Below are positions 992-15,388 of a DNA stretch of 49,223 nucleotides, in pieces. Every line of letters begins with the position of its first letter. Positions within the stretch are counted from its first letter, which is position 1. The notes under the pieces were generated by a model. That model was not told the origin of the DNA. It saw nothing but the letters and a program-made list of their open reading frames with translations, and did not search any database. The stretch is taken from the NCBI GenBank assembly GCA_021298455.1, contig JAJTFR010000003.1, forward strand, positions 1-49,223, written 5' to 3'. A program made the position numbers and the translations under genes. This stretch comes from Sphingomonadales bacterium (lineage in GTDB: Bacteria > Pseudomonadota > Alphaproteobacteria > Sphingomonadales > Sphingomonadaceae).

Positions 992-1483
992 TCACGCGCC
1001 GGCGATTAGCATCGTCGCGCCGGACAGGATTGCAGCAAAGATCAGACAAGTGCCCAGCGGAATGCGCTGGGTCTGCCAGGCGGTCTGCCGTGGCCGGAAC
1101 AATCGCTGCAGCACGGCATAGGCCAAGCCCGATAAAGCTGCGAACAGCAATATCGTTGGCAGCACCTGCCAGCCAAGCCAGGCACCGATCCCGCCCAGCA
1201 GAATTGGATCGCCGCCGCCAAGGCCTTCACGGCCGCGCAGATGTCGATAGGCAGCGGCGACGGCGGCAAGGCCAAGATAGCCGGCACCGGCGCCGATCAG
1301 CGCGTCACTTTTGGATATGCCAAAAGCAAGGTGACCGACGACCAGCCCGGCGAACAGAAAGATAATATTGGAAGCCAGCGGCAGGCGAAAATAGCGCGCG
1401 TCGCTCCAGGCCATGATCCCCATCAACACCAGTGCGCTGGCAATCAGCAGCATCTGGATTGTTACAGGGATCAGGCTTTCCAT
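992..1483 (-). CDS. gspO: Prepilin peptidase, A24 family, short form (T2SS GspO)
   Basis: Inner-membrane aspartyl protease that cleaves the leader of type II secretion pseudopilins. At 163 residues it is the short form: only the A24 peptidase domain is present, without the N-terminal cytoplasmic domain that carries the Cys motif and methyltransferase in PilD. The two catalytic aspartates are visible as Asp28 (WSDARYFRLP) and Asp92 in the GGGDPILL loop, with several hydrophobic helices around them. It is the last gene of the copper oxidase operon (multicopper oxidase A, oxidase B, SCO, unknown protein, gspO) and lies 5 bp after the preceding stop. No other prepilin peptidase gene is in the window, so it is the obvious processing enzyme for the five pseudopilins at 10.7-12.6 and 15.4-15.8 kb. 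This ties the oxidase operon to secretion. Confidence 0.85.
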   Translation of the reverse strand: MESLIPVTIQMLLIASALVLMGIMAWSDARYFRLPLASNIIFLFAGLVVGHLAFGISKSDALIGAGAGYLGLAAVAAAYRHLRGREGLGGGDPILLGGIGAWLGWQVLPTILLFAALSGLAYAVLQRLFRPRQTAWQTQRIPLGTCLIFAAILSGATMLIAGA

Positions 1484-1488
1484 CGCAG

Positions 1489-1998
1489 TTACCGGATAGC
1501 CGACTGCCCGAAACGCGCCACTCCCTTATTGTCGAACGATACCGTTAGCAGACGGCTCCCAACGCGCGTGCGCCAGGCCATGCCGGGCCTGTGCGGGGGC
1601 AGAACCTCCAGTTCGGCGTTGGGAAAATACCGTTTGCCTGCCGATAAAATCGCATCGATCGGGGCATAGCTGCGGCACACCAGCGCGCCTTTTGGCAACG
1701 CCGTCGTCGTGGCGACGCGCCGGACTAGCCGTGCTTCGAAATTTTCGGAATCGATTTCAAAGACCTTTAACTCCTTGCGCGTGGCAACGGCGACACGGGC
1801 AACGCCCGGCCGGGCAATGCGGTAAGAAACCAGCATGCTGCCGAACAGGCGTGTTTGTGCGACGGCAACTTGCGCGGCGGCAATATTGCGTTCTTCAGGC
1901 GCGACGATAAGCCGGCCTTCACGATCAAATGTCTGAGCCGATAGCGGCGACGCAATTAGCTGCGCCGCCACTATCGCCATAAAGGCTGTTGTCTTCAT
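1489..1998 (-). CDS. Exported protein of unknown function in the copper oxidase operon
   Basis: I do not recognise a family. The 169-residue product begins with a typical Sec signal peptide (Lys, a hydrophobic core, then SPLSAQ near residues 17-22), so the mature protein should be periplasmic or secreted. It has one Cys, no lipobox and no further membrane segment. The body is predicted mixed alpha/beta, with several RVAVA-type strands. Its start overlaps the end of the upstream SCO gene by 4 bp, and gspO follows 5 bp after its stop, so it is clearly co-translated with copper-related and secretion-related genes. A role as an accessory or assembly factor for the oxidase pair is inference from position only. 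Confidence 0.7.
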   Translation of the reverse strand: MKTTAFMAIVAAQLIASPLSAQTFDREGRLIVAPEERNIAAAQVAVAQTRLFGSMLVSYRIARPGVARVAVATRKELKVFEIDSENFEARLVRRVATTTALPKGALVCRSYAPIDAILSAGKRYFPNAELEVLPPHRPGMAWRTRVGSRLLTVSFDNKGVARFGQSAIR

Positions 1999-2684
1999 GA
2001 CTTTGCTTTTTTCAGCCTTCGTACGGTTTCAATCAGAATCTTCGGCGTAGAGGTGTGATAGCCATAGCCAGCCACCTTGGCGCGCGGATCAAGGATGTAG
2101 ATCAGCGAGCTATGGTTGATGCTGTGGCCGCGCTCACCATCACGCGGCGGCGTATGTTCACGGGCAACCCGAAAGGCAACTGTCGCAGCCGAGAGTTGGC
2201 CCCGCGTCCCGGTCAGGATTTGCATGTCCGAACCAAAGCTTTGCTGCAACGAACGCAGCGCCGCCTTGCGGTCAACCAGATGGACATGGCCATCATGGTC
2301 GGCGCTTTCATCTCCGCGACGACGGACATTGCCGACAGCAGGCGCTTCGATATCGACAAAGACAGCATTGGTATTGATGCCAACCTTGCTCAATTCCTTA
2401 GCAGCCGTCGCGATCACCGGGATCGCCATCGGGCAGCTGTCGGTGCAGCGGGCATAGCCGAAATAGAGCAATGTCCACTGCCCCTTAAAATCGGTATCAC
2501 CAACCGGCTTTCCAGCCAGGTTCGAGAAGTTGAACATCCCGCCCAGTTGGTCTGGATTGGGCGGCAGATGTCCATAATGTTTATCAACAGCGCGATCGTC
2601 AGCGGTTACCAGCTGTGCTGTTTCAAGTCCGCCGTCACCGGCAAGCGTGAAACCACGGGCGAGGAAGATTGTAGGGGTTGTCAT
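1995..2684 (-). CDS. SCO1/SenC family copper-binding protein (thioredoxin fold)
   Basis: The SCO signature is present: CTDSCP with the CxxxC copper ligands Cys80 and Cys84, preceded by the LLYFGYARC strand, and the third ligand His191 in INHSSLIY. SCO proteins deliver copper to, or reduce, copper sites in exported enzymes, classically CuA of cytochrome oxidase. Here the gene is translationally coupled (ATGA overlap) to multicopper oxidase-like protein B, so the oxidase is the likely client. Oddities are that no signal peptide or N-terminal anchor is visible, unlike the second SCO at 5184-5801, and that a His/Asp-rich insertion occurs around residues 125-135 (ESADHDGHVH). Without its own signal it may be cytoplasmic, or exported with a partner; an alternative upstream start would overlap gene B and add no signal. 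Confidence 0.85.
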   Translation of the reverse strand: MTTPTIFLARGFTLAGDGGLETAQLVTADDRAVDKHYGHLPPNPDQLGGMFNFSNLAGKPVGDTDFKGQWTLLYFGYARCTDSCPMAIPVIATAAKELSKVGINTNAVFVDIEAPAVGNVRRRGDESADHDGHVHLVDRKAALRSLQQSFGSDMQILTGTRGQLSAATVAFRVAREHTPPRDGERGHSINHSSLIYILDPRAKVAGYGYHTSTPKILIETVRRLKKAKS

Positions 2685-3712
2685 GTTACGATGATCCTTG
2701 TGTCAACGATGCCGCGGCCGCCATCCTGCACTTGGCCATTGACCCAATGGAGGAAACGGTGGCGAATGGGGAACGTGCCGCGCGCGGTCGGGCGGATGAT
2801 GATATCGCGGCGTTGCGCCGTCGACATGATGAAGGGCCGGTTTGCAGGCAGCGGCAACGGAGAACACCAGGGTTCAGTACCCAGGGCACAGCCGTCCATT
2901 GCGTGGCATACACCGGGCAGGCCAATAGTCGTTTCCAAAACCGAATAGCTGGCATTCAGCAGGCGGATCAGGATTGTCTGGCCCAGCTTTGCATTGATCA
3001 CAACGCGCGGATCGGTGGTGGTGCGGTTGTTGAACACACCATTGGCGAGGAAATATTTGGGCTCAAAACGATTGAGGCCCTCATCCTCACCGCACATTCC
3101 GGCATTATGATTAGCATTTTCGTGCCAGCGCGGGTCCATGTCATCGAGGCACAAGATGCGCTCGACATCATATTTGGGTCCGCCGCTGAACAATGTGCCG
3201 GGACCTTCTGGCGGATCGACAATCAGCATGCCGAACATGCCCATTTCGAAATGAAGCACGGTGTTGCGATGGCAATGGTAGAAGAATGTGCCAGCCCGCG
3301 AAGGCCGAAACTGATAAGTGTATCGCGATTTAACCTCAAACGAGACGTGGCCGACGCCATCATTCACCGTGGTCGGTTCGATGCCGTGATGGTGAAGCGT
3401 GTGCGCATTCTTTTTGGGATCGAGCGTGCTGTGCACGATCTGCCCCTGGCGGAAACGCATGGTCGGCGCAGGATGCATGGGTGCCCGCCCCGCCGCTGTA
3501 GGTGCCAAAGGATCAGAAAAGGTCCAGAGGCGTATTTTCTTGCCGTCTGGTGTCGGCAAATCATAGCTGACATCCATGTGGCGCTCGATGCTGACGTCGG
3601 GTTTAACCCGGTCAGGTGTCGGGAAATTTGATTCCTGATAAGGGTTGCAGCCAAAGATGTCGTAATTCATCTCGCCCTTGACGGCGGTTTTTGTCCAATC
3701 TGGCGTTTGCAT
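2681..3712 (-). CDS. Multicopper oxidase-like protein B (carries the type 1 copper site and half of the trinuclear site)
   Basis: A 343-residue cupredoxin-type protein. HTLHHHG at 104-110 fits HxxHxH (His104, His107, His109). FFYHCH at 143-148 followed by His154 and Met159 gives HCH-x5-H-x4-M. Together these supply a full type 1 site (His104, Cys147, His154, Met159) and four of the eight trinuclear-cluster histidines (107, 109, 146, 148). The C-terminal half looks like a further cupredoxin domain without canonical ligands. No signal peptide is visible. The start is firm: AGGAG lies 8 nt before ATG 3712. It follows oxidase A by 42 bp and overlaps the SCO gene by ATGA. The missing half of the trinuclear site is found in protein A, so a heteromeric enzyme is inferred. 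The substrate (phenols, Cu(I), Mn(II) or other) cannot be read from sequence. Confidence 0.85.
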   Translation of the reverse strand: MQTPDWTKTAVKGEMNYDIFGCNPYQESNFPTPDRVKPDVSIERHMDVSYDLPTPDGKKIRLWTFSDPLAPTAAGRAPMHPAPTMRFRQGQIVHSTLDPKKNAHTLHHHGIEPTTVNDGVGHVSFEVKSRYTYQFRPSRAGTFFYHCHRNTVLHFEMGMFGMLIVDPPEGPGTLFSGGPKYDVERILCLDDMDPRWHENANHNAGMCGEDEGLNRFEPKYFLANGVFNNRTTTDPRVVINAKLGQTILIRLLNASYSVLETTIGLPGVCHAMDGCALGTEPWCSPLPLPANRPFIMSTAQRRDIIIRPTARGTFPIRHRFLHWVNGQVQDGGRGIVDTRIIVT

Positions 3713-3754
3713 GGCAAAGCTCCTGAAATAATAAGATAAAGATCGTCGAACGGA

Positions 3755-4879
3755 TCAAAGCGGCCCGGTCATTTCCCAGTGGGTGACCATGCCTTGGGGA
3801 TAATTGCCCCCGCCGGCTGTCTGAGACATTTCGGTGTGGCAATGCATCACATAGCGCATCGGGAAGGGTTCTTCCTTTGGCGGCCAGACGACAGCATCCA
3901 TTGGCTTTTCAAACGGCAGCAGAACGTCGCGGCGCGTCATTGGCTCCATCGGCCAGGCGTCGAGTTCGTAACAGTTGGTGTTCAATATGATTGTACCATC
4001 TGCGCGCGTATCACACAATTTGAAGATATGGTTGCCATGGATGTGCGGGCTGTGTGTGCACAGGCCGGCGTTCATGTTGCGGATCAGTGTCGGCTGGCCT
4101 TCGCGGCCATGCGGCATGATGCGCCCGGAACCCTTCGACCAGTCAAGGGTGGAATCGATCTTGTGCGGTGCGGTATCATATCCGCTCAGCCCGTTGATCG
4201 TGAAGTAACGGGGCAGGAAGGTCGGCACGACGCTTGCGGGCGGGATGACCTCGCCTGCATCAAAACGTGCAGCGATCAGCGGATCAACCTGCGAGAACAG
4301 CCACAATTTGTCGCGCTCCACATCACGGGGCACCCATTTGTTACCCGGGAAGCGCTTGTGCACGCCAAGGGCATCAAACAAGGCCGCAACCTGCGGCGTG
4401 TGCGTTGAACGGCTGTAGGGCGTGGGCGAACCGCCGACAGTCGTCCCCAGTTTCGGATGAACAATGAACGCACCATAAAGGCCCAGGATGCGGTGCAACG
4501 GAGCGAGCATGGGGTCGATATACATATAGGTGCCGCCAACGGGCGCGGTGAACCGCACCGTTGCCTTGCCACCCGGGGGAATCGAAGCAACCGACGCTGT
4601 GGGAATGCCGGGGATGGCAAAACCGTGCGGACGGGTATCGAGGTTGGTGACATTGATCGTCACAATATCGCCCTCGGTGACCTCAAGGATCGGGCGACCT
4701 TCGGCGCTGCGATCAAAGAACATCATACTAAAGACGAACACGCCGTCGATCATCTCGGAATCAACAGCTTCGATCGTCAGATCAAAAACGCCGCCGGTTG
4801 TCTGCGCGGAAGCCATCGCAGGGAGGGCAGCAGCCCCCGCCGCAACGGTACTAACCTTCAAAAATTTGCGTCTATCCAT
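3755..4879 (-). CDS. Multicopper oxidase-like protein A, Tat-exported, trinuclear-half ligands only
   Basis: A 374-residue protein from ATG 4879, chosen because it places the twin-arginine motif RRKFLK at the N-terminus followed by a hydrophobic stretch ending ASAQ; a GTG at 4894 would add only five residues. Numbering here is from that GTG. The N-terminal cupredoxin domain has lost its copper motifs: RPHGF stands where HxHG is expected and YIDP where HxH is expected. The C-terminal domain keeps HSPHIH (281-286) and HCH (351-353), but the third type 1 ligand of HCHxxxH is Ser357. It therefore offers four trinuclear histidines (284, 286, 351, 353) and no complete type 1 site, the exact complement of protein B downstream. 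Tat export suits a protein folded with metal or with a partner. It is the first gene of the operon behind the CtrA-type box. Confidence 0.85.
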   Translation of the reverse strand: MDRRKFLKVSTVAAGAAALPAMASAQTTGGVFDLTIEAVDSEMIDGVFVFSMMFFDRSAEGRPILEVTEGDIVTINVTNLDTRPHGFAIPGIPTASVASIPPGGKATVRFTAPVGGTYMYIDPMLAPLHRILGLYGAFIVHPKLGTTVGGSPTPYSRSTHTPQVAALFDALGVHKRFPGNKWVPRDVERDKLWLFSQVDPLIAARFDAGEVIPPASVVPTFLPRYFTINGLSGYDTAPHKIDSTLDWSKGSGRIMPHGREGQPTLIRNMNAGLCTHSPHIHGNHIFKLCDTRADGTIILNTNCYELDAWPMEPMTRRDVLLPFEKPMDAVVWPPKEEPFPMRYVMHCHTEMSQTAGGGNYPQGMVTHWEMTGPL

Positions 4880-4959
4880 TTTTCTAACTCTCACTTGAAA
4901 GACATGTGCCGACTCAGCGTGTCGTCAATAGGAGCGAGATAGAGGCGAATGGATACAGG

Positions 4960-5101
4960 TTAAAAGATGATTAACCATTCAAAATACCCATTTTGGCAGA
5001 TTAATATTTCATATTTGAACTATATATTCCGCCAAAATAGTGAGTTCTTTGTATAAATTGGTCATTTTGTTAACCATATTTTATTATTCGTTAACCATAT
5101 T
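4960..5101. promoter_or_regulatory. AT-rich control region with a CtrA-type box and TTAACCAT repeats
   Basis: The 304-bp gap upstream of the oxidase operon (4880-5183) is far more AT-rich than its surroundings and holds no gene. TTAA-N7-TTAACC, the full CtrA recognition pattern of alphaproteobacteria, occurs at 4960-4976, about 80 bp before the oxidase A start. Two further TTAACCAT half-sites lie at 5070-5077 and 5091-5098, 21 bp apart and in the same orientation, inside a 12-bp direct repeat (GTTAACCATATT). An inverted pair ATTTTGGC (4990-4997) and GCCAAAAT (5031-5038) lies between them and may bind another factor. CtrA binding is inferred from motif identity only; no clear -35/-10 pair could be fixed. 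Confidence 0.5.
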
Positions 5102-5183: not shown

Positions 5184-5801
5184 CTATTTGACTAGTGACT
5201 CGAGCTTTTGCTGGAACTCGGCCTCGTCGGCATCAAAGCCAATTTCGCCTGCACGCTTGCCCTCGCGATCAACCAGAAACAGCGATGCGGTATGGTCGAT
5301 CGTATAATCCGTCTCGGAATAGCGGACGGTTTCATAGAACACGTCAAACTGCTTGGCCGCGCCGGCGATATCGGCAGCGCTGCCCGTCAAACCTGTGACG
5401 GGGATCGGAAACGAACCGAAATAGCTTTTCAGCGCTTCGGGCGTATCCCGTTCGGGATCGAGCGACACAAACAGGATCTGCAGGTCGTTAAACGGCGCGC
5501 CAATCCGTTCGCGCATGATCGACAGCTTTTGCATCGTCATCGGGCAGACATCGGGGCACTGGGTGAAACCGAAAAATACCGCAACCGGCTTGCCTTTCAG
5601 CGAGGCAAGATCGAACGGCTCGCCGTTTGCATCGGTCAGCTTGAGTTTGACGGGCGCGCCCAGCGTAGGATCAGCCGCAGATTTTTCCGCAATGGCCGCA
5701 TTTTTTTCATGCGCCGCATAATAAAGATAGGCGCCACCTGAAATTGCGGAGACGGCGAGGCCTGCAAGAATGAATTGGGTTGCGCGTTCAGTGATTCGCA
5801 T
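5184..5801 (-). CDS. SCO1/SenC family copper chaperone, membrane-anchored
   Basis: Start ATG 5801 is chosen because AGGGAG lies just upstream and because it puts a single N-terminal membrane helix (residues 9-28) at the front, the usual SCO layout; a longer frame to 5879 adds only an unlikely extension. The copper motif is QCPDVCP with Cys82 and Cys86, and the ligand His is in DYTIDHTASLFLVD near residue 167. This is a standard SCO protein for handing copper to an exported copper enzyme. It overlaps the PCu(A)C gene by 14 bp and ends the gspG-to-gspD transcription unit. A cytochrome oxidase client elsewhere in the genome is possible, but the oxidase pair downstream is the nearer candidate. 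Confidence 0.9.
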   Translation of the reverse strand: MRITERATQFILAGLAVSAISGGAYLYYAAHEKNAAIAEKSAADPTLGAPVKLKLTDANGEPFDLASLKGKPVAVFFGFTQCPDVCPMTMQKLSIMRERIGAPFNDLQILFVSLDPERDTPEALKSYFGSFPIPVTGLTGSAADIAGAAKQFDVFYETVRYSETDYTIDHTASLFLVDREGKRAGEIGFDADEAEFQQKLESLVK

Positions 5802-6276
5802 GGGTCGCTCCCTTTGATGCGGTTTTTGCGGATGCAGCGGTAACGGGCACCGCGACATCCAGAATGGCGCCGCCTGCAAAGCGCAAACGGACGGTGATCT
5901 TGTCGCCTGCCTTCAAAGGCTGCTTCAAACCCATGAGCATGAGATGGTGACCACGCGGCGCCAGTTTCAACTCGCCCCGGGCGGGCACGGCCAGCCGATC
6001 GACGCGGCGCATGCGCGCAATGCCGTCTTTCAGTTCGGTACTGTGTATCTGCACCTCGGCGGCGACGCTGGATGACGCACCGATCAATGTTTCGGACGTC
6101 TTGCCCAGATTGCGCAGCGAGATATAGGCCGCGGCCACTTTCTGACCTGGCCCAGCCGGGGTTGCCCATGCTGTGCCGGGCTGCACCGCTGTCGGGGCCT
6201 TGCCAACGGCGATCTGCGAGACAACGGCAAGGCCGCACAGCAGCATCGCCCCTGTCGGGGTGATATTCAAACTCAT
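5788..6276 (-). CDS. Periplasmic copper chaperone PCu(A)C
   Basis: The family motif HX10MX21HXM is present exactly: a His in VQIHSTEL, ten residues to the Met of IARMRR, then 21 residues to the HLM that ends PRGHHLM. The protein starts with a signal-like hydrophobic segment, so it is periplasmic. PCu(A)C binds Cu(I) and passes copper to SCO proteins or CuA sites. It begins 11 bp after the gspD stop and overlaps the SCO gene, so a copper relay is apparently co-transcribed with the T2SS. The C-terminus ends in a short Ala/Lys/His tail that could also bind metal. Confidence 0.92.
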   Translation of the reverse strand: MSLNITPTGAMLLCGLAVVSQIAVGKAPTAVQPGTAWATPAGPGQKVAAAYISLRNLGKTSETLIGASSSVAAEVQIHSTELKDGIARMRRVDRLAVPARGELKLAPRGHHLMLMGLKQPLKAGDKITVRLRFAGGAILDVAVPVTAASAKTASKGATHANH

Positions 6277-6287
6277 GATTTTACTCC

Positions 6288-8444
6288 TTATTTTGGATTT
6301 TCGAAGCGCGAATAGCTGTGCAGGGGCATCGTTTGACCCGGCATCCAGGGCACCAAGGTAAAGGCCTTTTGCCCGCGGCCATTCATCAGTCCGTTGATAG
6401 ATTTGCCAAATTCGGACGCGATATTCTGCATCGTCCGGTCTTCGCTGATCACCTTGGGTGTCACGAGGATCAGCAATTCGGTCTTGCGCTTGGTCGCGCT
6501 GTCGACGCGGAATGCCCGCCCCAAAAGCGGGATATCTTTCAACAAGGGCACGCCGCGCTGTCCCATCGAATTGCTGTCCTGGATCATCCCTCCAAGCACG
6601 GCCGTCATGCCTTCACGCAAGGAAAGCCGCGTCGTGACCGACCGGTTGCTGATCACCGGGCTACCGATGGCAGAGGTAACGTTGGGCTGCTGGCTCGACA
6701 CTTCCTGGAAAATTTCAATGTCGATTCGATCATTGCTCAACACCACCGGGCGGATGTTGAGGATCACGCCCGTCTGGCGATACTGCACCGTCTGCAGGAT
6801 ATCAGTGTCGCCATTTGACTGGATATCCGCCGCGCGTTGCGATGTGATGATCGGCACATCATTGCCGATCAGTATCTGCGCCTCGCCGCCCGACCTTGCG
6901 AGCAGCCGCGGCGTGGAAATGATGTTAAGATTCTGGTTGGTCGCAATCGCATTCAATGCAGCGGTCACCGAAGTCTGCGAAAAGCCCTTTGCAAAGGTAA
7001 GCCCCAGCCCGCCGGCCTCCCGCGCGAGCCCGCCGGTGGTATTGGCCTGAACCGATCCGTTCGACAATTGCCGATCGAGGAACCATTCCATTCCGAAACG
7101 CGTCTCGTCGGTCAATGCCACTTCGGCGATGGTGATTTCGACCAGCACCTGTTTGGGGGCGACATCCAGTTCCTTCAGCAAGCGCAGCAACGGCGCATAT
7201 TCGCGCCGGGTGCCGCGAAAAAGAATGCGGTTGCCGGGATTGTCGACAATGATCTTGCCGCCGCTGTCCTCGTTGGCCGGGTTCGCCTGTGGCAGACCGG
7301 ACCGTTCCATGCCCGACGCCCGTTGGCCGCTTTCGCTGCGGCGCGCCGAATCTTCGATCCGGCCCTGCGGTGCGGCAATAGTGCTGACATCATCGCCGCC
7401 ATTCGCGCGCCCGACCAGACTGCCCAGTTCGGCGGCCGTGGTGTTGCGCACCTGATAGACAAAAAAGCCGGCATGATCGCCGCCTGATCCTTCGAGCGAA
7501 TCGAGCTGTTCAACCCAGTAAAGGACGCGGTTGAACAGCCGCACATCGTCGGAAAACAGCAACAGGCAATCGGGGCGCGACAGGTGCACAAGGTTGGTGC
7601 CCCCAGAGCCTGCGGATCCGATCGAGAAGCCTTCGCTTGCCAGCACCTCGCGCAGTTTTTCTGCCAGCGCGTCCGAACTCCAGAGCATCGGGGCGATTCG
7701 GGCAACGCGCGCGCCGGCATATTGCGGCTGGTCAATCCCGGCGAGCAGCCCGCTGGCAGCGGCCACTGCAGCTTCGTCGCCCTGCAGCATGACACCATTG
7801 GCATCGGGCAGCGATTGCACCGCAACCCCGCTTTGCCCTTCAACAATATCTGCAACGATGCCAGCTGCAGGGTCTGCAGCGATATTGCCGAGCGCGACGA
7901 TCTGCGTAACGCCCGCCTTCAATTGCTGGACACCCGTTTTCGCCGGTGCCTCGCGCACCAGAACCGCGCCGCCTTGCTGGACAAGCACCAACCCATATTG
8001 GTTCAGGGCTTTTTCGGCGAGCCGCAAGAATTGCCGCGATGACATTTCCTGCGGTCCGCTCATGCTCACAAGATCGCGGCGCTGCGCCACACCTGGTCCC
8101 ATGATATAGGGTACGCCCAGTATCTGCCCAAGGACGGTTTCGGCAAACTGGCCCAACGGTTGCGGGGGCAGGCTTGCTGCGACTTTCTTGTCGGGTACCA
8201 GCGTCGCCAGATCTGTATCGCTCAACGGCGCATCGTCGCCCGTCGTCACAGGCGCATCGATCAACACCGTTGTACGCGGCGCGATATCCTGGATCGGCTG
8301 GGGTGGAGGCGATGCGATAGGCGACGACAATGCCTCATCCGAAAGCATCAGCGGCTCAACGGAAATGCGCGGCTGAACATCAGCGGAGGACGATGCAATG
8401 GCAATCGCCAGAATCGCGGTGCTGGACATGAGCATTTGCATCAT
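6288..8444 (-). CDS. gspD: T2SS outer-membrane secretin GspD
   Basis: The multimeric outer-membrane channel of type II secretion. The 718 residues begin with a short signal peptide. N-domains follow, with repeats of the VYQVRNTTAAELGSLV and ILFRGTRREY types, then the C-terminal secretin domain: VPIITSQ, VILNIRPVV, and the closing signature around VPLLKDIPLLGRAF followed by TELLILVTPKVI. A Ser/Arg-rich linker sits between the N-domains (EDSARRSESGQR). AGGA precedes the ATG. It follows the gspC-like gene by 5 bp. No pilotin (GspS) gene is seen near it. Confidence 0.93.
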   Translation of the reverse strand: MMQMLMSSTAILAIAIASSSADVQPRISVEPLMLSDEALSSPIASPPPQPIQDIAPRTTVLIDAPVTTGDDAPLSDTDLATLVPDKKVAASLPPQPLGQFAETVLGQILGVPYIMGPGVAQRRDLVSMSGPQEMSSRQFLRLAEKALNQYGLVLVQQGGAVLVREAPAKTGVQQLKAGVTQIVALGNIAADPAAGIVADIVEGQSGVAVQSLPDANGVMLQGDEAAVAAASGLLAGIDQPQYAGARVARIAPMLWSSDALAEKLREVLASEGFSIGSAGSGGTNLVHLSRPDCLLLFSDDVRLFNRVLYWVEQLDSLEGSGGDHAGFFVYQVRNTTAAELGSLVGRANGGDDVSTIAAPQGRIEDSARRSESGQRASGMERSGLPQANPANEDSGGKIIVDNPGNRILFRGTRREYAPLLRLLKELDVAPKQVLVEITIAEVALTDETRFGMEWFLDRQLSNGSVQANTTGGLAREAGGLGLTFAKGFSQTSVTAALNAIATNQNLNIISTPRLLARSGGEAQILIGNDVPIITSQRAADIQSNGDTDILQTVQYRQTGVILNIRPVVLSNDRIDIEIFQEVSSQQPNVTSAIGSPVISNRSVTTRLSLREGMTAVLGGMIQDSNSMGQRGVPLLKDIPLLGRAFRVDSATKRKTELLILVTPKVISEDRTMQNIASEFGKSINGLMNGRGQKAFTLVPWMPGQTMPLHSYSRFENPK

Positions 8445-12642: not shown

Positions 12643-14175
12643 TTGAACAGTAATATTGTAGACTTTCTTAACGCACATGGCTTGATTTCGCAGGCTGACC
12701 TTGTCGAAGCTCGGGCTTTGCAGGCGCATGGCGGCGGTTCTGTCGCGGCGGCATTGATCCGACTGGGCGTTATCGGCGACGAACGACTGGCCGAGGCAGT
12801 GGCGGGGGCAATGGCCCTGCCCTTGCTGGCAGACGCGCCTGATATTGGTCAGATCCTTGCCGCGCAGCAGAGCCTGCGTTTTTCGCTGAACTGGCTCGCG
12901 GAGCAGGAAGTGCTGATCTGGCACGACGCGCTTGATCGCCCATGCATTGCCTTTGCCAGCGGCAGCAACGCGCTGATCGAAGAAGCGATGGAGCAGTGGG
13001 ATATTGCGCCCGGCCGCCGCTTTGCGGTCGCGCTGCGCCTGCTGCGCGCCGTTCTGGCCGATCTGGAGCAGGGCAGCGGCAGCCAGCCTGCATCAGGCAG
13101 CACCGGCAAGCTGGAAGAATTGGCCGAAGACGCACCGGCGATCGAATTCATCAATGCAATGCTGTCCGAAGCGATGGCCCGCCGGGCAAGCGACATTCAT
13201 ATCGAACCATTCAAGGGCGATATGCAGATCCGCTTGCGAATCGATGGAACGTTGCATCTCTGGCGTACCGTTCCTGCAATCCGCTTTGCAGCCACCGCCT
13301 CGCGCATCAAGCTGTTATGCGGAATGGATATCGCTGAACGGCGAACACCGCAGGACGGCCGTTACAGCTTGCGCATTGCCGGCCGCGACGTCGATATCCG
13401 CGCATCCTGCCTGCCGGGCGTTTGGGGCGAATCGATCGTATTGCGCTTTCTGGGCCGCACCGTTGACCTGCCTTCGCTCGCCGATCTGGGTGTAGCGCCG
13501 GCGATGGCGCAGCAATTGGGCGATCTGATCCGCCAGCCTGCAGGCCTGGTGTTGATCGCCGGACCCACCGGGTCGGGGAAAACGACAACCGTCTACAAAC
13601 TGCTAGAGCAGTTGAATGACGGTTCACGCAAGATCATCACCATCGAAGACCCTGTCGAAATCGATCTGCCGGGCGTGATCCAGGTCAATGTGCGACAGGA
13701 TATCGGGCTGGAATTTGCCACCGGCCTGCGATCGATGCTGCGCCAAGACCCTGACGTGATTTTCGTCGGCGAAATTCGCGATTCGGAAACGGCACAAATG
13801 GCAACCCGAGCGGCGATGACGGGGCATCTGGTGATTTCCACCGTACACACCCGTTCAGCGGCAGCGTCCATCACGCGCATGGTTGACCTTGGCGTTGAAG
13901 GCTATTTGCTGGCGGAGGCGATCAGCGGGATCATTGCGCAGCGCCTGTTGCGGCGGCGCAGCGCCGACAACACTTATAGCGGCCGGATCGGCGTCTATGA
14001 ATTGATGGGCGTCGATCCGCTGTTGCGCGACGCGATCCGGCGTAACGCCCCGCAGAATGAACTTGAACAACTTGCCTCGCAGACAGGCTATCGGCCGATG
14101 ATCGATGACGCCCGCGACAAGGCGGACGTCGGATTGACCGACGCGGGTGAAATCCAGCGGGTGCTGGGTGACTGA
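12643..14175 (+). CDS. gspE: T2SS ATPase GspE
   Basis: Hexameric cytoplasmic secretion ATPase that powers pseudopilus assembly. The start is TTG. Visible parts are an N-terminal N1E-like helical domain, Walker A GPTGSGKTTT at 307-316, the Asp box near IITIEDPVE, Walker B DPDVIFVGEIRD at 369-380 and the His box around STVHTRSA. The zinc-binding tetracysteine region that normally lies between QRL.RR and Y.GR.GI.EL is absent: RLLRRRSADNTYSGRIGVYELM shows only about eight residues there and no Cys. It begins the divergent operon and is separated from gspF by one base. Confidence 0.93.
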   Translation: MNSNIVDFLNAHGLISQADLVEARALQAHGGGSVAAALIRLGVIGDERLAEAVAGAMALPLLADAPDIGQILAAQQSLRFSLNWLAEQEVLIWHDALDRPCIAFASGSNALIEEAMEQWDIAPGRRFAVALRLLRAVLADLEQGSGSQPASGSTGKLEELAEDAPAIEFINAMLSEAMARRASDIHIEPFKGDMQIRLRIDGTLHLWRTVPAIRFAATASRIKLLCGMDIAERRTPQDGRYSLRIAGRDVDIRASCLPGVWGESIVLRFLGRTVDLPSLADLGVAPAMAQQLGDLIRQPAGLVLIAGPTGSGKTTTVYKLLEQLNDGSRKIITIEDPVEIDLPGVIQVNVRQDIGLEFATGLRSMLRQDPDVIFVGEIRDSETAQMATRAAMTGHLVISTVHTRSAAASITRMVDLGVEGYLLAEAISGIIAQRLLRRRSADNTYSGRIGVYELMGVDPLLRDAIRRNAPQNELEQLASQTGYRPMIDDARDKADVGLTDAGEIQRVLGD

Positions 14176-14176
14176 A

Positions 14177-15388
14177 ATGACCGATGACGACGCAAGCTAT
14201 GATTATGTCGCGATTGACGGCAACGGGCGGCGGCAACGCGGCACGGTGCAAGCCGACAACGCGACCCAGGCCTTTGCCAAGGTGACCCGCCAGCATCTGA
14301 CCGTCGTCAAGCTGGAACGATCGGGTGCGGGCGACACTGCCGGCCGTAAGGCAACGTCCCGCCGCGACCAGATTGCCTTGCTGCGGCAATTGGGAATGAT
14401 GCTGCAGGCGCGCGTCGATCTGATGCAGGCACTTATGGCGATGCAGGCCGGTGCAGCCACGCCAGCACTGCGTTCGGCAATCGACGTTGCGATGGCTGAA
14501 CTGCGTAGCGGAAAGCCCTTGGGTGCATGCCTCAGCACCGCGATTCCGGGTATGCCGTCCAATATCCTCGCGCTGGTCAATGCGGGGGAGGCCGGCGGCT
14601 GCCTGGCAGAAACCATCGGCCATGCCATCGACCAGTTGGAGGCCGAGGAACGGATCGCGGCGACCATCAAGAGCGCGCTGGTATATCCCGCCTTTTTGTC
14701 GATCGCCGGATTGATGGCTGGCATGATCATGCTACTGTTCGTCATCCCCCGCTTTGCAACGCTGATCGGCGAACGTCGCGACCAGCTTGATACCATGTCG
14801 CGGCTGATTTTCTGGCTGGGTGACGTTGCCCAGCAAAGTTTTGCGCTGGCGTTGATCGCGCCTCTGGCCGCGCTCCTTTTTCTTATGGTCACCGGCCTGC
14901 GTGGCGATAATGCCTGGTTGCGCCGCTTTGCAATCCGCCACATCCCTTTGCTCGCGCGGCTGGCGCTGCAACGCGAACGCGAACGGTGGTGCCGGATCAT
15001 GGCCTTTGCGCTGCTCGCGCGCATATCCATCGTCGATGCCATGCGGCTGGCTGCAGACGGCCTTAAAGACATGGCTTTGCAGGAACGCGCAATCAACGCG
15101 TCGCGCGAATTGCGAGTCGGCAGCCGGGTGGCAGACGCGATCGCTGAGATCAGGCTGTTGGATGAGGCGCAATTGAGCCTCGTGCGTGCCGGCGAGGAAT
15201 CGGGGCTTTTGGCCGACATGTTCCGGCGCATCGCGATCGACACGGAAGAGGGGCTGCGGGAAAGCCTGAAGCGCACCACCGGGGTGCTCGAACAATCCGT
15301 GGTGGTCGCGGTTTCTCTTTTCGTCGGGCTGATTGTCTATGGCCTGATCGCCTCTCTGACGAGCGTATACGAAACGATCCCGCTATGA
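14177..15388 (+). CDS. gspF: T2SS inner-membrane platform protein GspF
   Basis: Two GspF/PilC cytoplasmic helical domains with polytopic membrane segments. The first repeat has the family signature around LLRQLGMMLQARVDLMQAL, and the second around MAFALLARISIVDAMRLA followed by SLVRAGEESG. Membrane helices occur near residues 165-190, 215-235 and 375-400. ATG 14177 follows the gspE stop by one base. GspF is the rotor-like platform that couples GspE to pseudopilin insertion. Length (403 aa) is normal. Confidence 0.93.
   Translation: MTDDDASYDYVAIDGNGRRQRGTVQADNATQAFAKVTRQHLTVVKLERSGAGDTAGRKATSRRDQIALLRQLGMMLQARVDLMQALMAMQAGAATPALRSAIDVAMAELRSGKPLGACLSTAIPGMPSNILALVNAGEAGGCLAETIGHAIDQLEAEERIAATIKSALVYPAFLSIAGLMAGMIMLLFVIPRFATLIGERRDQLDTMSRLIFWLGDVAQQSFALALIAPLAALLFLMVTGLRGDNAWLRRFAIRHIPLLARLALQRERERWCRIMAFALLARISIVDAMRLAADGLKDMALQERAINASRELRVGSRVADAIAEIRLLDEAQLSLVRAGEESGLLADMFRRIAIDTEEGLRESLKRTTGVLEQSVVVAVSLFVGLIVYGLIASLTSVYETIPL

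What the first reader, a model, noticed from the sequence alone, without database searches (positions are those of the whole stretch)
2681..4879. A split multicopper oxidase: two proteins with exactly complementary copper ligands
Seen: protein B has a full type 1 set (His104, Cys147, His154, Met159) and four trinuclear histidines (107, 109, 146, 148), but no second half. Protein A has the other four (His284, His286, His351, His353) and has lost its type 1 site (Ser357 replaces the ligand His) and its N-terminal HxH motifs. Family knowledge: laccase-like enzymes need eight trinuclear histidines from two domains plus one type 1 site. Inference: A and B assemble, with the active site at the subunit interface. 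Both genes have their own start signals, and the motifs in each are intact where the other lacks them, so this is not a simple frameshift.
Basis: partly seen in the sequence, partly recalled or inferred. Interest (0 to 1): 0.85.

Follow-up and report, generated by a model that had tools for sequence, protein, structure and literature searches.

The report
Copper oxidase built from two genes
Two neighbouring genes encode sister copper proteins, each of which kept the half of an oxygen-reducing copper site that the other lost, so they most likely work only as a pair; this would be an unusual way to build a laccase-like enzyme.

Summary
A (3755-4879, minus) and B (2681-3712, minus) are adjacent genes with complementary copper ligands. 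'Split' needs correcting: both are two-domain proteins, homologous over both domains to two-domain multicopper oxidases (2dMCOs), and paralogous to each other. A's first domain and B's second domain have lost their trinuclear ligand sets. The pattern is fixed: 14 of 14 A relatives and 13 of 13 B relatives keep their own half-site. A and B sit side by side in the same 4 of 296 order genomes. One actinobacterial plasmid has A but no B. Another has A running in frame into B, with a frameshift in B. Both genes are under purifying selection. A has a Tat signal and B has no signal, so B probably leaves the cell bound to A. In 7 of 7 sphingomonad loci the pair lies in a type II secretion cluster with SCO copper-chaperone genes, reminiscent of the iodide-oxidase cluster. 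Best reading: a heteromeric 2dMCO whose trinuclear site is shared between two gene products, secreted as a complex. No structure or biochemistry confirms this; both AlphaFold models were too poor to use. New variant of a known kind.

The parts
3755..4879 (-). Protein A, 374 aa: Tat signal, degenerate first cupredoxin domain, second domain with trinuclear half-site H279/H281/H346/H348 and a partial type 1 site (H276, C347, S352)
2681..3712 (-). Protein B, 343 aa: no signal peptide, first cupredoxin domain with full type 1 site (H104, C147, H154, M159) and trinuclear half-site H107/H109/H146/H148, second domain without the ligands
3720..3724 (-). AGGAG, likely ribosome-binding site of B, between A's TGA and B's ATG
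   Evidence: present in 5 of 5 Erythrobacter-group loci
1995..2684 (-). SCO1/SenC-family protein, start overlaps B's stop (ATGA); probable copper insertion factor
   Evidence: PF02630, 5.1e-23; downstream of B in 7 of 7 sphingomonad loci (window)
1489..1998 (-). Uncharacterised 169-aa protein with a secretion-signal-like N-terminus (by eye), syntenic in 6 of 7 sphingomonad loci
   Evidence: (no Pfam match)
992..1483 (-). Type IV prepilin peptidase (A24) of the T2SS cluster
   Evidence: PF01478
5184..5801 (-). Second SCO1/SenC protein with a hydrophobic N-terminus
   Evidence: PF02630, 3.1e-42
5788..6276 (-). PCu(A)C copper chaperone
   Evidence: PF04314, 5.3e-35
6288..8444 (-). Type II secretion secretin (GspD)
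   Evidence: PF00263, PF03958
8450..12597 (-). Further T2SS genes (GspC/M/L/K-like by position, pseudopilin with N-methylation motif, GspG)
   Evidence: PF08334 for GspG, PF07963; the others have no Pfam match that names them and are assigned by position and synteny only
12643..15388 (+). GspE ATPase and GspF, divergent half of the T2SS cluster
   Evidence: PF00437, PF00482

Best explanation
A and B are paralogous subunits of a heteromeric two-domain multicopper oxidase. An ancestral 2dMCO of the type A kind (type 1 copper in both domains, trinuclear site between domain 2 of one protomer and domain 1 of the next) was duplicated. The two copies then lost complementary halves. A kept the trinuclear half-site of its second domain; B kept the type 1 copper and trinuclear half-site of its first domain. 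A working centre (one type 1 plus three trinuclear coppers) therefore exists only where A's domain 2 meets B's domain 1. B's type 1 copper takes electrons from the substrate and passes them through its His-Cys-His strand to the shared trinuclear site, where O2 is reduced to water. The folded complex probably leaves the cytoplasm through Tat on A's signal with B as a hitchhiker, is loaded with copper by the SCO and PCu(A)C proteins, and is exported by the T2SS encoded around it. Shown: complementary fixed ligands, paralogy, 2dMCO homology of both over two domains, co-occurrence, purifying selection, an in-frame A-B fusion (with a frameshift in B) in Arthrobacter, signal peptide on A only, T2SS/SCO synteny. 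Inferred: physical assembly, stoichiometry, Tat piggy-backing, secretion, oxidase activity, the duplication history. Substrate unknown; iodide, metals or phenols are candidates by analogy only.
For: Ligands: 14 of 14 A keep H279/H281/H346/H348, and none has more than one His at the four trinuclear positions of the first domain; the type 1 Cys there is Asp in 14 of 14. 13 of 13 B keep all eight domain-1 ligands, and the domain-2 trinuclear positions are lost in 13 of 13. Homology: A versus a profile of two Halorussus proteins and one Deinococcus 2dMCO, Prob 99.9, E 1.4e-31 over both domains, with A's motifs on the oxidase's domain-2 motifs; B versus the same profile, Prob 99.9, E 1.7e-32; A versus B, Prob 99.0, E 5.4e-18 over domain 1, the linker and the start of domain 2. 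The Halorussus proteins carry both half-sites and His-Cys-His in both domains. Co-occurrence: A and B in the same 4 of 296 order genomes, 0 with only one; B in 2 of 385 class genomes, both with A beside it; 4 of 4 B loci from the genome-contig scan have A beside them; three pairs in Indioceanicola. Fusion: in Arthrobacter FW305-BF8 the A frame continues into the start of B. Selection: dN/dS 0.05-0.14 in A (14 of 15 comparisons gave a value) and 0.04-0.12 in B (15 of 15). Export: signal-like hydrophobic N-termini on 13 of 14 A, none on 12 of 12 complete B starts. Context: T2SS-type genes near 9 of 12 Gram-negative pairs and an SCO gene after B in 9 of 13 pairs; GspD of at least 88% identity in exactly the four A/B genomes of 296.
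Against: No structural support: AlphaFold2 of the read-through A+B chain gave pLDDT 38.8 and pTM 0.31, and B alone 46.0 and 0.47, from 9 and 10 rows; both were discarded. Paenarthrobacter plasmid pTC1 has an A relative (526 aa) and no B at E 1e-10 anywhere on its 328 kb; its chromosome was not searched. The Arthrobacter fusion carries a frameshift inside B, and its A shows no recognisable signal peptide, so it may be decaying. Pfam's Tat model matches the window's A but not A of L008, L015 or pTC1 at E 0.01. Stray histidines remain in the dead half of A: at one trinuclear position in 3 of 14 (two of them alignment-dependent), at the first type 1 position in 14 of 14, and at the second type 1 position in the window alone. 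A two-subunit alternation does not fit the threefold ring of known 2dMCOs, so the assembly must be a heterotrimer with one complete site, an even-numbered ring, or a simple dimer. B's lack of a signal could also mean it stays in the cytoplasm. 4 of 13 pairs have no SCO gene recognised after B, and 3 of 12 Gram-negative pairs have no T2SS gene within the stretch examined.
Confidence: 0.8

Rival explanations
1. A and B do not share a site: B is a type 1 blue copper electron carrier, and A is a copper-storage or copper-delivery protein that reuses the cupredoxin fold.
For: B's type 1 site is complete in itself. A and B sit among copper chaperones. An A-like protein occurs without B on one plasmid.
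Against: A plain electron carrier has no use for B's four trinuclear histidines, and A's four would be idle; both sets are fixed (13 of 13, 14 of 14). The counterpart sets are lost in the partner. Fusion and one-to-one adjacency.
Confidence: 0.1
2. A single A-B gene was recently broken by a stop codon (the in-frame TGA), so the window holds a split or dying gene.
For: In the window A and B are in the same frame with only one TGA and 14 open codons between them; 7 of 12 separate-gene pairs are in the same frame. A fused form exists in Arthrobacter.
Against: The two genes are separate in 12 of 13 pairs and in different frames in 5 of those 12; B has its own ATG in 12 of 12, with an AGGAG in the window and four other Erythrobacter-group loci. 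Both genes are under purifying selection. The two-gene form spans divergent Alphaproteobacteria.
Confidence: 0.04
3. A and B are two subunits of a larger iodide-oxidase-like (IOX) complex in which a third protein, not their mutual interface, supplies part of the active site.
For: IOX contains IoxA plus IoxC, three SCO1/SenC genes in the cluster and gsp genes flanking it (PMC9415286, passages): the same style of neighbourhood.
Against: IoxA (62 kDa) is described as carrying all four copper regions in one chain, unlike A or B. The ligand sets of A and B already add up to one complete site. No other multicopper-like gene was found among the 25 window proteins scanned.
Confidence: 0.06

Closest known systems
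Homotrimeric two-domain multicopper oxidases (types A, B, C; SLAC, CjMCO, 2ZWN, 3G5W)
   Same: Two cupredoxin domains per chain; trinuclear ligands from domain 1 of one protomer and domain 2 of its neighbour (PMC13151041, passages); B's domain 1 has the ligands of the type A/C pattern, and A and B align with 2dMCOs over two domains.
   Different: Known ones are described as homotrimers (PMC13151041, PMC3192119, passages); here each gene product has only one half-site.
Haloarchaeal type A 2dMCO (Halorussus, L018 and L021)
   Same: Both half-sites and type 1 motifs in both domains; C-terminal HCH...YPGGM resembles A's HCH...YPQGM; Tat signal.
   Different: One gene, one protein; no second A- or B-like match in the 16-17 kb fetched around it.
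Iodide oxidase (IOX) of Iodidimonas and Roseovarius: ioxABCDEF
   Same: Alphaproteobacterial extracellular multicopper oxidase with at least two proteins, SCO1/SenC genes and gsp genes around it (PMC9415286, passages; PMC12335899, passages).
   Different: IoxA has all four copper regions in one 62-kDa chain and IoxC is 71 kDa of unclear function.
Mnx manganese oxidase (MnxG with MnxE3F3)
   Same: A multicopper oxidase that needs other gene products (PMC5622069, passages).
   Different: MnxE and MnxF are small proteins without similarity to characterised proteins; MnxG is the multicopper oxidase of the complex and is similar to known ones.
Ceruloplasmin, six-domain oxidase (recalled)
   Same: A pseudo-trimer of two-domain units that keeps one trinuclear site out of three possible interfaces.
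   Different: All in one chain; recalled from general knowledge, not tested here.

Membership tests
Two-domain multicopper oxidase (2dMCO) | Two cupredoxin domains per chain, homologous to known 2dMCOs | tested here: met
   hhalign over both domains for A and into the second domain for B; Pfam Cu-oxidase_3 in the first domain of each. Pfam names no second domain in either window protein
Two-domain multicopper oxidase (2dMCO) | Eight trinuclear histidines and at least one type 1 site within one chain type | tested here: not met
   4 + 4 histidines divided between two gene products; complete type 1 site only in B
Two-domain multicopper oxidase (2dMCO) | Homotrimer with interfacial trinuclear site | not testable with these tools
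   AlphaFold2 models too poor; the tool gives no multi-chain model
Three-domain laccase | Three cupredoxin domains, type 1 in domain 3 | tested here: not met
   374 and 343 aa, aligned to two-domain oxidases; the intact type 1 site is in the first domain of B
Copper nitrite reductase | Specific NirK model above its cut-off | tested here: not met
   TIGR02376 scores 38.5 (A) and 40.2 (B) against a cut-off of 296.3
IOX (iodide oxidase) cluster | SCO1/SenC and gsp genes around a multi-protein multicopper oxidase | tested here: met
   against the description in PMC9415286; that A and B form one oxidase is itself inferred
IOX (iodide oxidase) cluster | IoxA: one chain with all four copper regions | tested here: not met
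   Neither A nor B has all regions; no other multicopper gene among the 25 window proteins scanned
IOX (iodide oxidase) cluster | IoxC homologue | not tested
   IoxC sequence not available; the primary paper is not held
Type II secretion cargo | Genetic linkage to a T2SS that co-occurs with the cargo | tested here: met
   GspD of at least 88% identity only in the four A/B genomes of 296; T2SS genes beside 7 of 7 sphingomonad loci; not found near 3 of 12 Gram-negative pairs
Type II secretion cargo | Demonstrated extracellular location dependent on the T2SS | not testable with these tools
   needs a knock-out and secretome

The most novel reading that the evidence does not exclude
A:B is a living intermediate between homotrimeric 2dMCOs and single-chain oxidases that keep one trinuclear site: an obligate heteromer made by duplication and complementary decay of half-sites, exported as one folded unit (Tat signal on one subunit only, then a T2SS that travels with this cargo), and joined in frame, though with a frameshift, on an actinobacterial plasmid.
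Probability: 0.5. Interest if true: 0.8.

Novelty: new variant of a known kind. Interest (0 to 1): 0.68.

Why it matters
If A and B share a trinuclear copper centre, this is a multicopper oxidase whose active site needs two different gene products. I saw no such case in the listings of the paper searches made. It shows how a symmetric homomer can turn into an asymmetric enzyme, the step long supposed (recalled) between two-domain oxidases and single-chain laccases or ceruloplasmin, and it can be tested by mixing two purified proteins. It also suggests a Tat-hitchhiker plus T2SS route for a copper enzyme, and a natural assay: the two halves would give oxidase activity only when joined.

Tried and rejected
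AlphaFold2 on the read-through A+B chain and on B with B and A relatives: mean pLDDT 38.8 and 46.0; not used, and no fold search was made on them. Viral contigs for more relatives: none in three scans. Phage records: no A. NirK, CopA and laccase models: weak, mainly first-domain similarity, far below cut-offs. Roseovarius S88 and Rhodobacteraceae SC52 multicopper genes that match B weakly: they sit with CopC/CopD and copper-resistance genes and are not A/B pairs. Frameshift or nonsense-split gene: rejected. In the MAFFT alignment the Halorussus residue under S352 is N because of a gap; counted from the Cys it is His.

The mirror correlation of A and B distances (r 0.98 over 78 pairs) is given little weight, because close relatives dominate it. 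The B profile was run in the class sample and the A profile in the phylum sample, not both in both. The genome-contig scan used peptide patterns of B and finds close relatives only. No actinobacterial genome, only plasmids, could be searched.
Full report
What is there. On the minus strand, A (4879-3755, 374 aa) is followed after 42 nt by B (3712-2681, 343 aa). B's stop overlaps the start of an SCO1/SenC protein (2684-1995). Upstream of A lie another SCO1/SenC protein and a PCu(A)C copper chaperone, then the secretin, GspG and further genes of a type II secretion system (T2SS), with GspE and GspF divergent; a prepilin peptidase lies downstream. Each of A and B has a Cu-oxidase_3 match in its first domain (3.2e-7 and 2.4e-12), and A has a Tat signal match. 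In the window's own genome (78% complete) A and B each occur once; the only other match to either at E 0.001 is one 610-aa frame, weakly similar.

Checking the ligands. B has His104-x-x-His107-x-His109 and His146-Cys147-His148-x5-His154-x4-Met159: a full type 1 site plus four trinuclear histidines. A has His276-x-x-His279-x-His281 and His346-Cys347-His348, with Ser352 in place of the second type 1 His. Among 14 A sequences (window, G180, G220, G194, L005, L007, L008, three from Indioceanicola, two from G639, Arthrobacter, Paenarthrobacter), H276, H279, H281, H346, C347, H348 and S352 are 14 of 14. Among 13 B sequences all eight ligands are 13 of 13. In the combined alignment the matching positions of the partner are dead. 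In A's first domain the type 1 Cys is Asp in 14 of 14; the first type 1 His stays in 14 of 14; the second is His in the window only; of the four trinuclear positions none is His in 11 of 14 and one is His in 3 of 14 (L007, and pTC1 and Arthrobacter, where it depends on the alignment). In B's second domain no trinuclear His remains in 13 of 13. The phrase 'no second half' is not right for B, and A keeps part of its type 1 site.

What they are. Profile comparison aligns A over both domains with a 2dMCO set of two Halorussus proteins and one from Deinococcus (Prob 99.9, E 1.4e-31), with A's motifs on the oxidase's domain-2 motifs. It does the same for B (E 1.7e-32), with B's domain 2 aligned but its ligands absent. 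A and B align with each other over domain 1, the linker and the start of domain 2 (Prob 99.0, E 5.4e-18). So they are paralogues, each two-domain, with complementary dead domains. The Halorussus proteins carry both half-sites and the His-Cys-His motif in both domains, the type A arrangement, which one survey found only in Archaea (PMC3192119, passages). Known 2dMCOs are trimers with trinuclear ligands from the first domain of one protomer and the second domain of the next (PMC13151041, passages). Solved-structure searches with the B profile put its domain 1 closest to 9CCK, 2ZWN and 3G5W; the A profile mainly matches domain 1 of nitrite reductases and 2dMCOs, and no solved second domain was clearly matched (best 60 of 134 shown).

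Do they go together? In 296 genomes of the order, B is in 4 and A in the same 4, side by side. In 385 class genomes B is in 2 (window and G639; G639 has two B), and each B has A beside it. In 398 phylum genomes the A profile finds only the window at E 1e-20. A scan of genome contigs gave four B loci, all with A adjacent. Indioceanicola has three pairs. In Arthrobacter FW305-BF8 the A frame runs on into the beginning of B before a frameshift, a fusion although not an intact one. The exception is Paenarthrobacter plasmid pTC1, with A and no B on the plasmid. Of 12 separate-gene pairs, A is upstream in all, gaps are 20-108 nt, and 7 pairs are in the same frame and 5 not. Within the species (window versus G180) the flanks are 93-100% identical per 250 nt, while 2001-5000 (SCO, B, A) is 80-91% in 11 of 12 blocks and 96% in one, so the module seems to recombine as a block.

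Functional or decaying? Among six Erythrobacter/Novosphingobium-group loci dN/dS is 0.05-0.14 for A and 0.04-0.12 for B (one of 15 A comparisons was saturated at synonymous sites and gave no value). Both are kept.

Export. Twelve complete B N-termini have no hydrophobic stretch (highest 15-residue Kyte-Doolittle mean 0.61; the Ind3 frame was read from its upstream stop, and the Arthrobacter B start is not separate), while 13 of 14 A have a signal-like stretch (1.24-1.96); Arthrobacter A, at 1.09, has none recognisable. Pfam's Tat model matches the window's A but not A of L008, L015 and pTC1 at E 0.01, although the first two show an RR motif. B has its own ATG with AGGAG in 5 of 5 Erythrobacter-group loci. 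The simplest route is Tat export of a folded A:B complex on A's signal. This is inference.

Neighbourhood. All 7 sphingomonad loci hold T2SS genes and an SCO gene after B (window; six others). One of two G639 pairs (L027: SCO, GspE, GspF, A24 homologues) and one of three Indioceanicola pairs (L044: SCO, one GspG homologue) do too, which makes 9 of 12 Gram-negative pairs with T2SS-type genes near. GspD at E 1e-60 or better is found in 8 of 296 order genomes; the four A/B genomes have at least 88% identity and the other four 32-42%. In 59 family genomes it is in 2, both A/B-positive. The T2SS seems to belong to this cargo. The iox cluster of Iodidimonas has the same style: an extracellular oxidase of at least two proteins, three SCO1/SenC genes, gsp genes beside it (PMC9415286, passages). 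IoxA there is described as carrying all four copper regions in one chain, so A/B differs. Sequences of IoxA and IoxC were not available.

Mechanism. Best reading: substrate electrons enter at B's type 1 copper, pass through His146-Cys147-His148 to a trinuclear site formed by B's H107/H109/H146/H148 and A's H279/H281/H346/H348, and reduce O2. Known 2dMCO rings have three protomers, which cannot alternate A and B. A heterotrimer with one complete site, an even ring or a dimer are all open. Cys347 and His276 of A remain invariant; whether they bind copper is unknown.

Limits. Both structure predictions failed, so the interface is untested. Literature: searches for heteromeric, heterodimeric or split laccase or multicopper oxidase listed laccase and phenoloxidase reviews, fungal laccase papers, 2dMCO papers and unrelated ones (12 of 336 listed; listings with the start of the abstract only). 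A 2017 paper calls MnxG the only characterised multicopper oxidase needing accessory proteins for overexpression (PMC5622069, passages). The library holds open-licence papers only, so novelty is not proven. Verdict: observation confirmed with corrections, interpretation supported by comparison, heteromeric 2dMCO likely (0.8), new variant of a known kind.

Noticed in passing
window 2001-5000 versus L028: Within one species, the block SCO-B-A is 80-91% identical in 11 of 12 blocks of 250 nt while flanks are 93-100%: apparent allelic replacement of the module.
   Followed up: partly
L019:7689-10036: Arthrobacter FW305-BF8: A continues in frame into the start of B, then a frameshift; A there shows no recognisable signal peptide.
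   Followed up: partly
L017:7335-8912 and L017:90-428: Paenarthrobacter pTC1 carries a 526-aa A relative without B on the plasmid, plus a fragment of a second A.
   Followed up: partly
window 1995-2684: The SCO protein after B has no clear signal peptide, so it may act in the cytoplasm or travel with the complex; the evidence is ambiguous.
   Followed up: no
window 2681-3712: B has further conserved residues outside the copper motifs: His197 and His202 (13 of 13), Cys22 (12 of 12 covered) and Cys207 (12 of 13); possible extra metal or disulphide site.
   Followed up: no
window 3755-4879: A keeps His276 and Cys347 with Ser352 in 14 of 14: an altered type 1-like site of unknown function.
   Followed up: no
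window 1489-1998: A 169-aa protein without a Pfam match is syntenic with the module in 6 of 7 sphingomonad loci.
   Followed up: no
hits H47-H54: Rhizobium, Afipia, Bradyrhizobium, Roseateles, Cupriavidus and Variovorax plasmid records hold weak A matches (23-27% identity); three of the eight are annotated with DUF4396.
   Followed up: no
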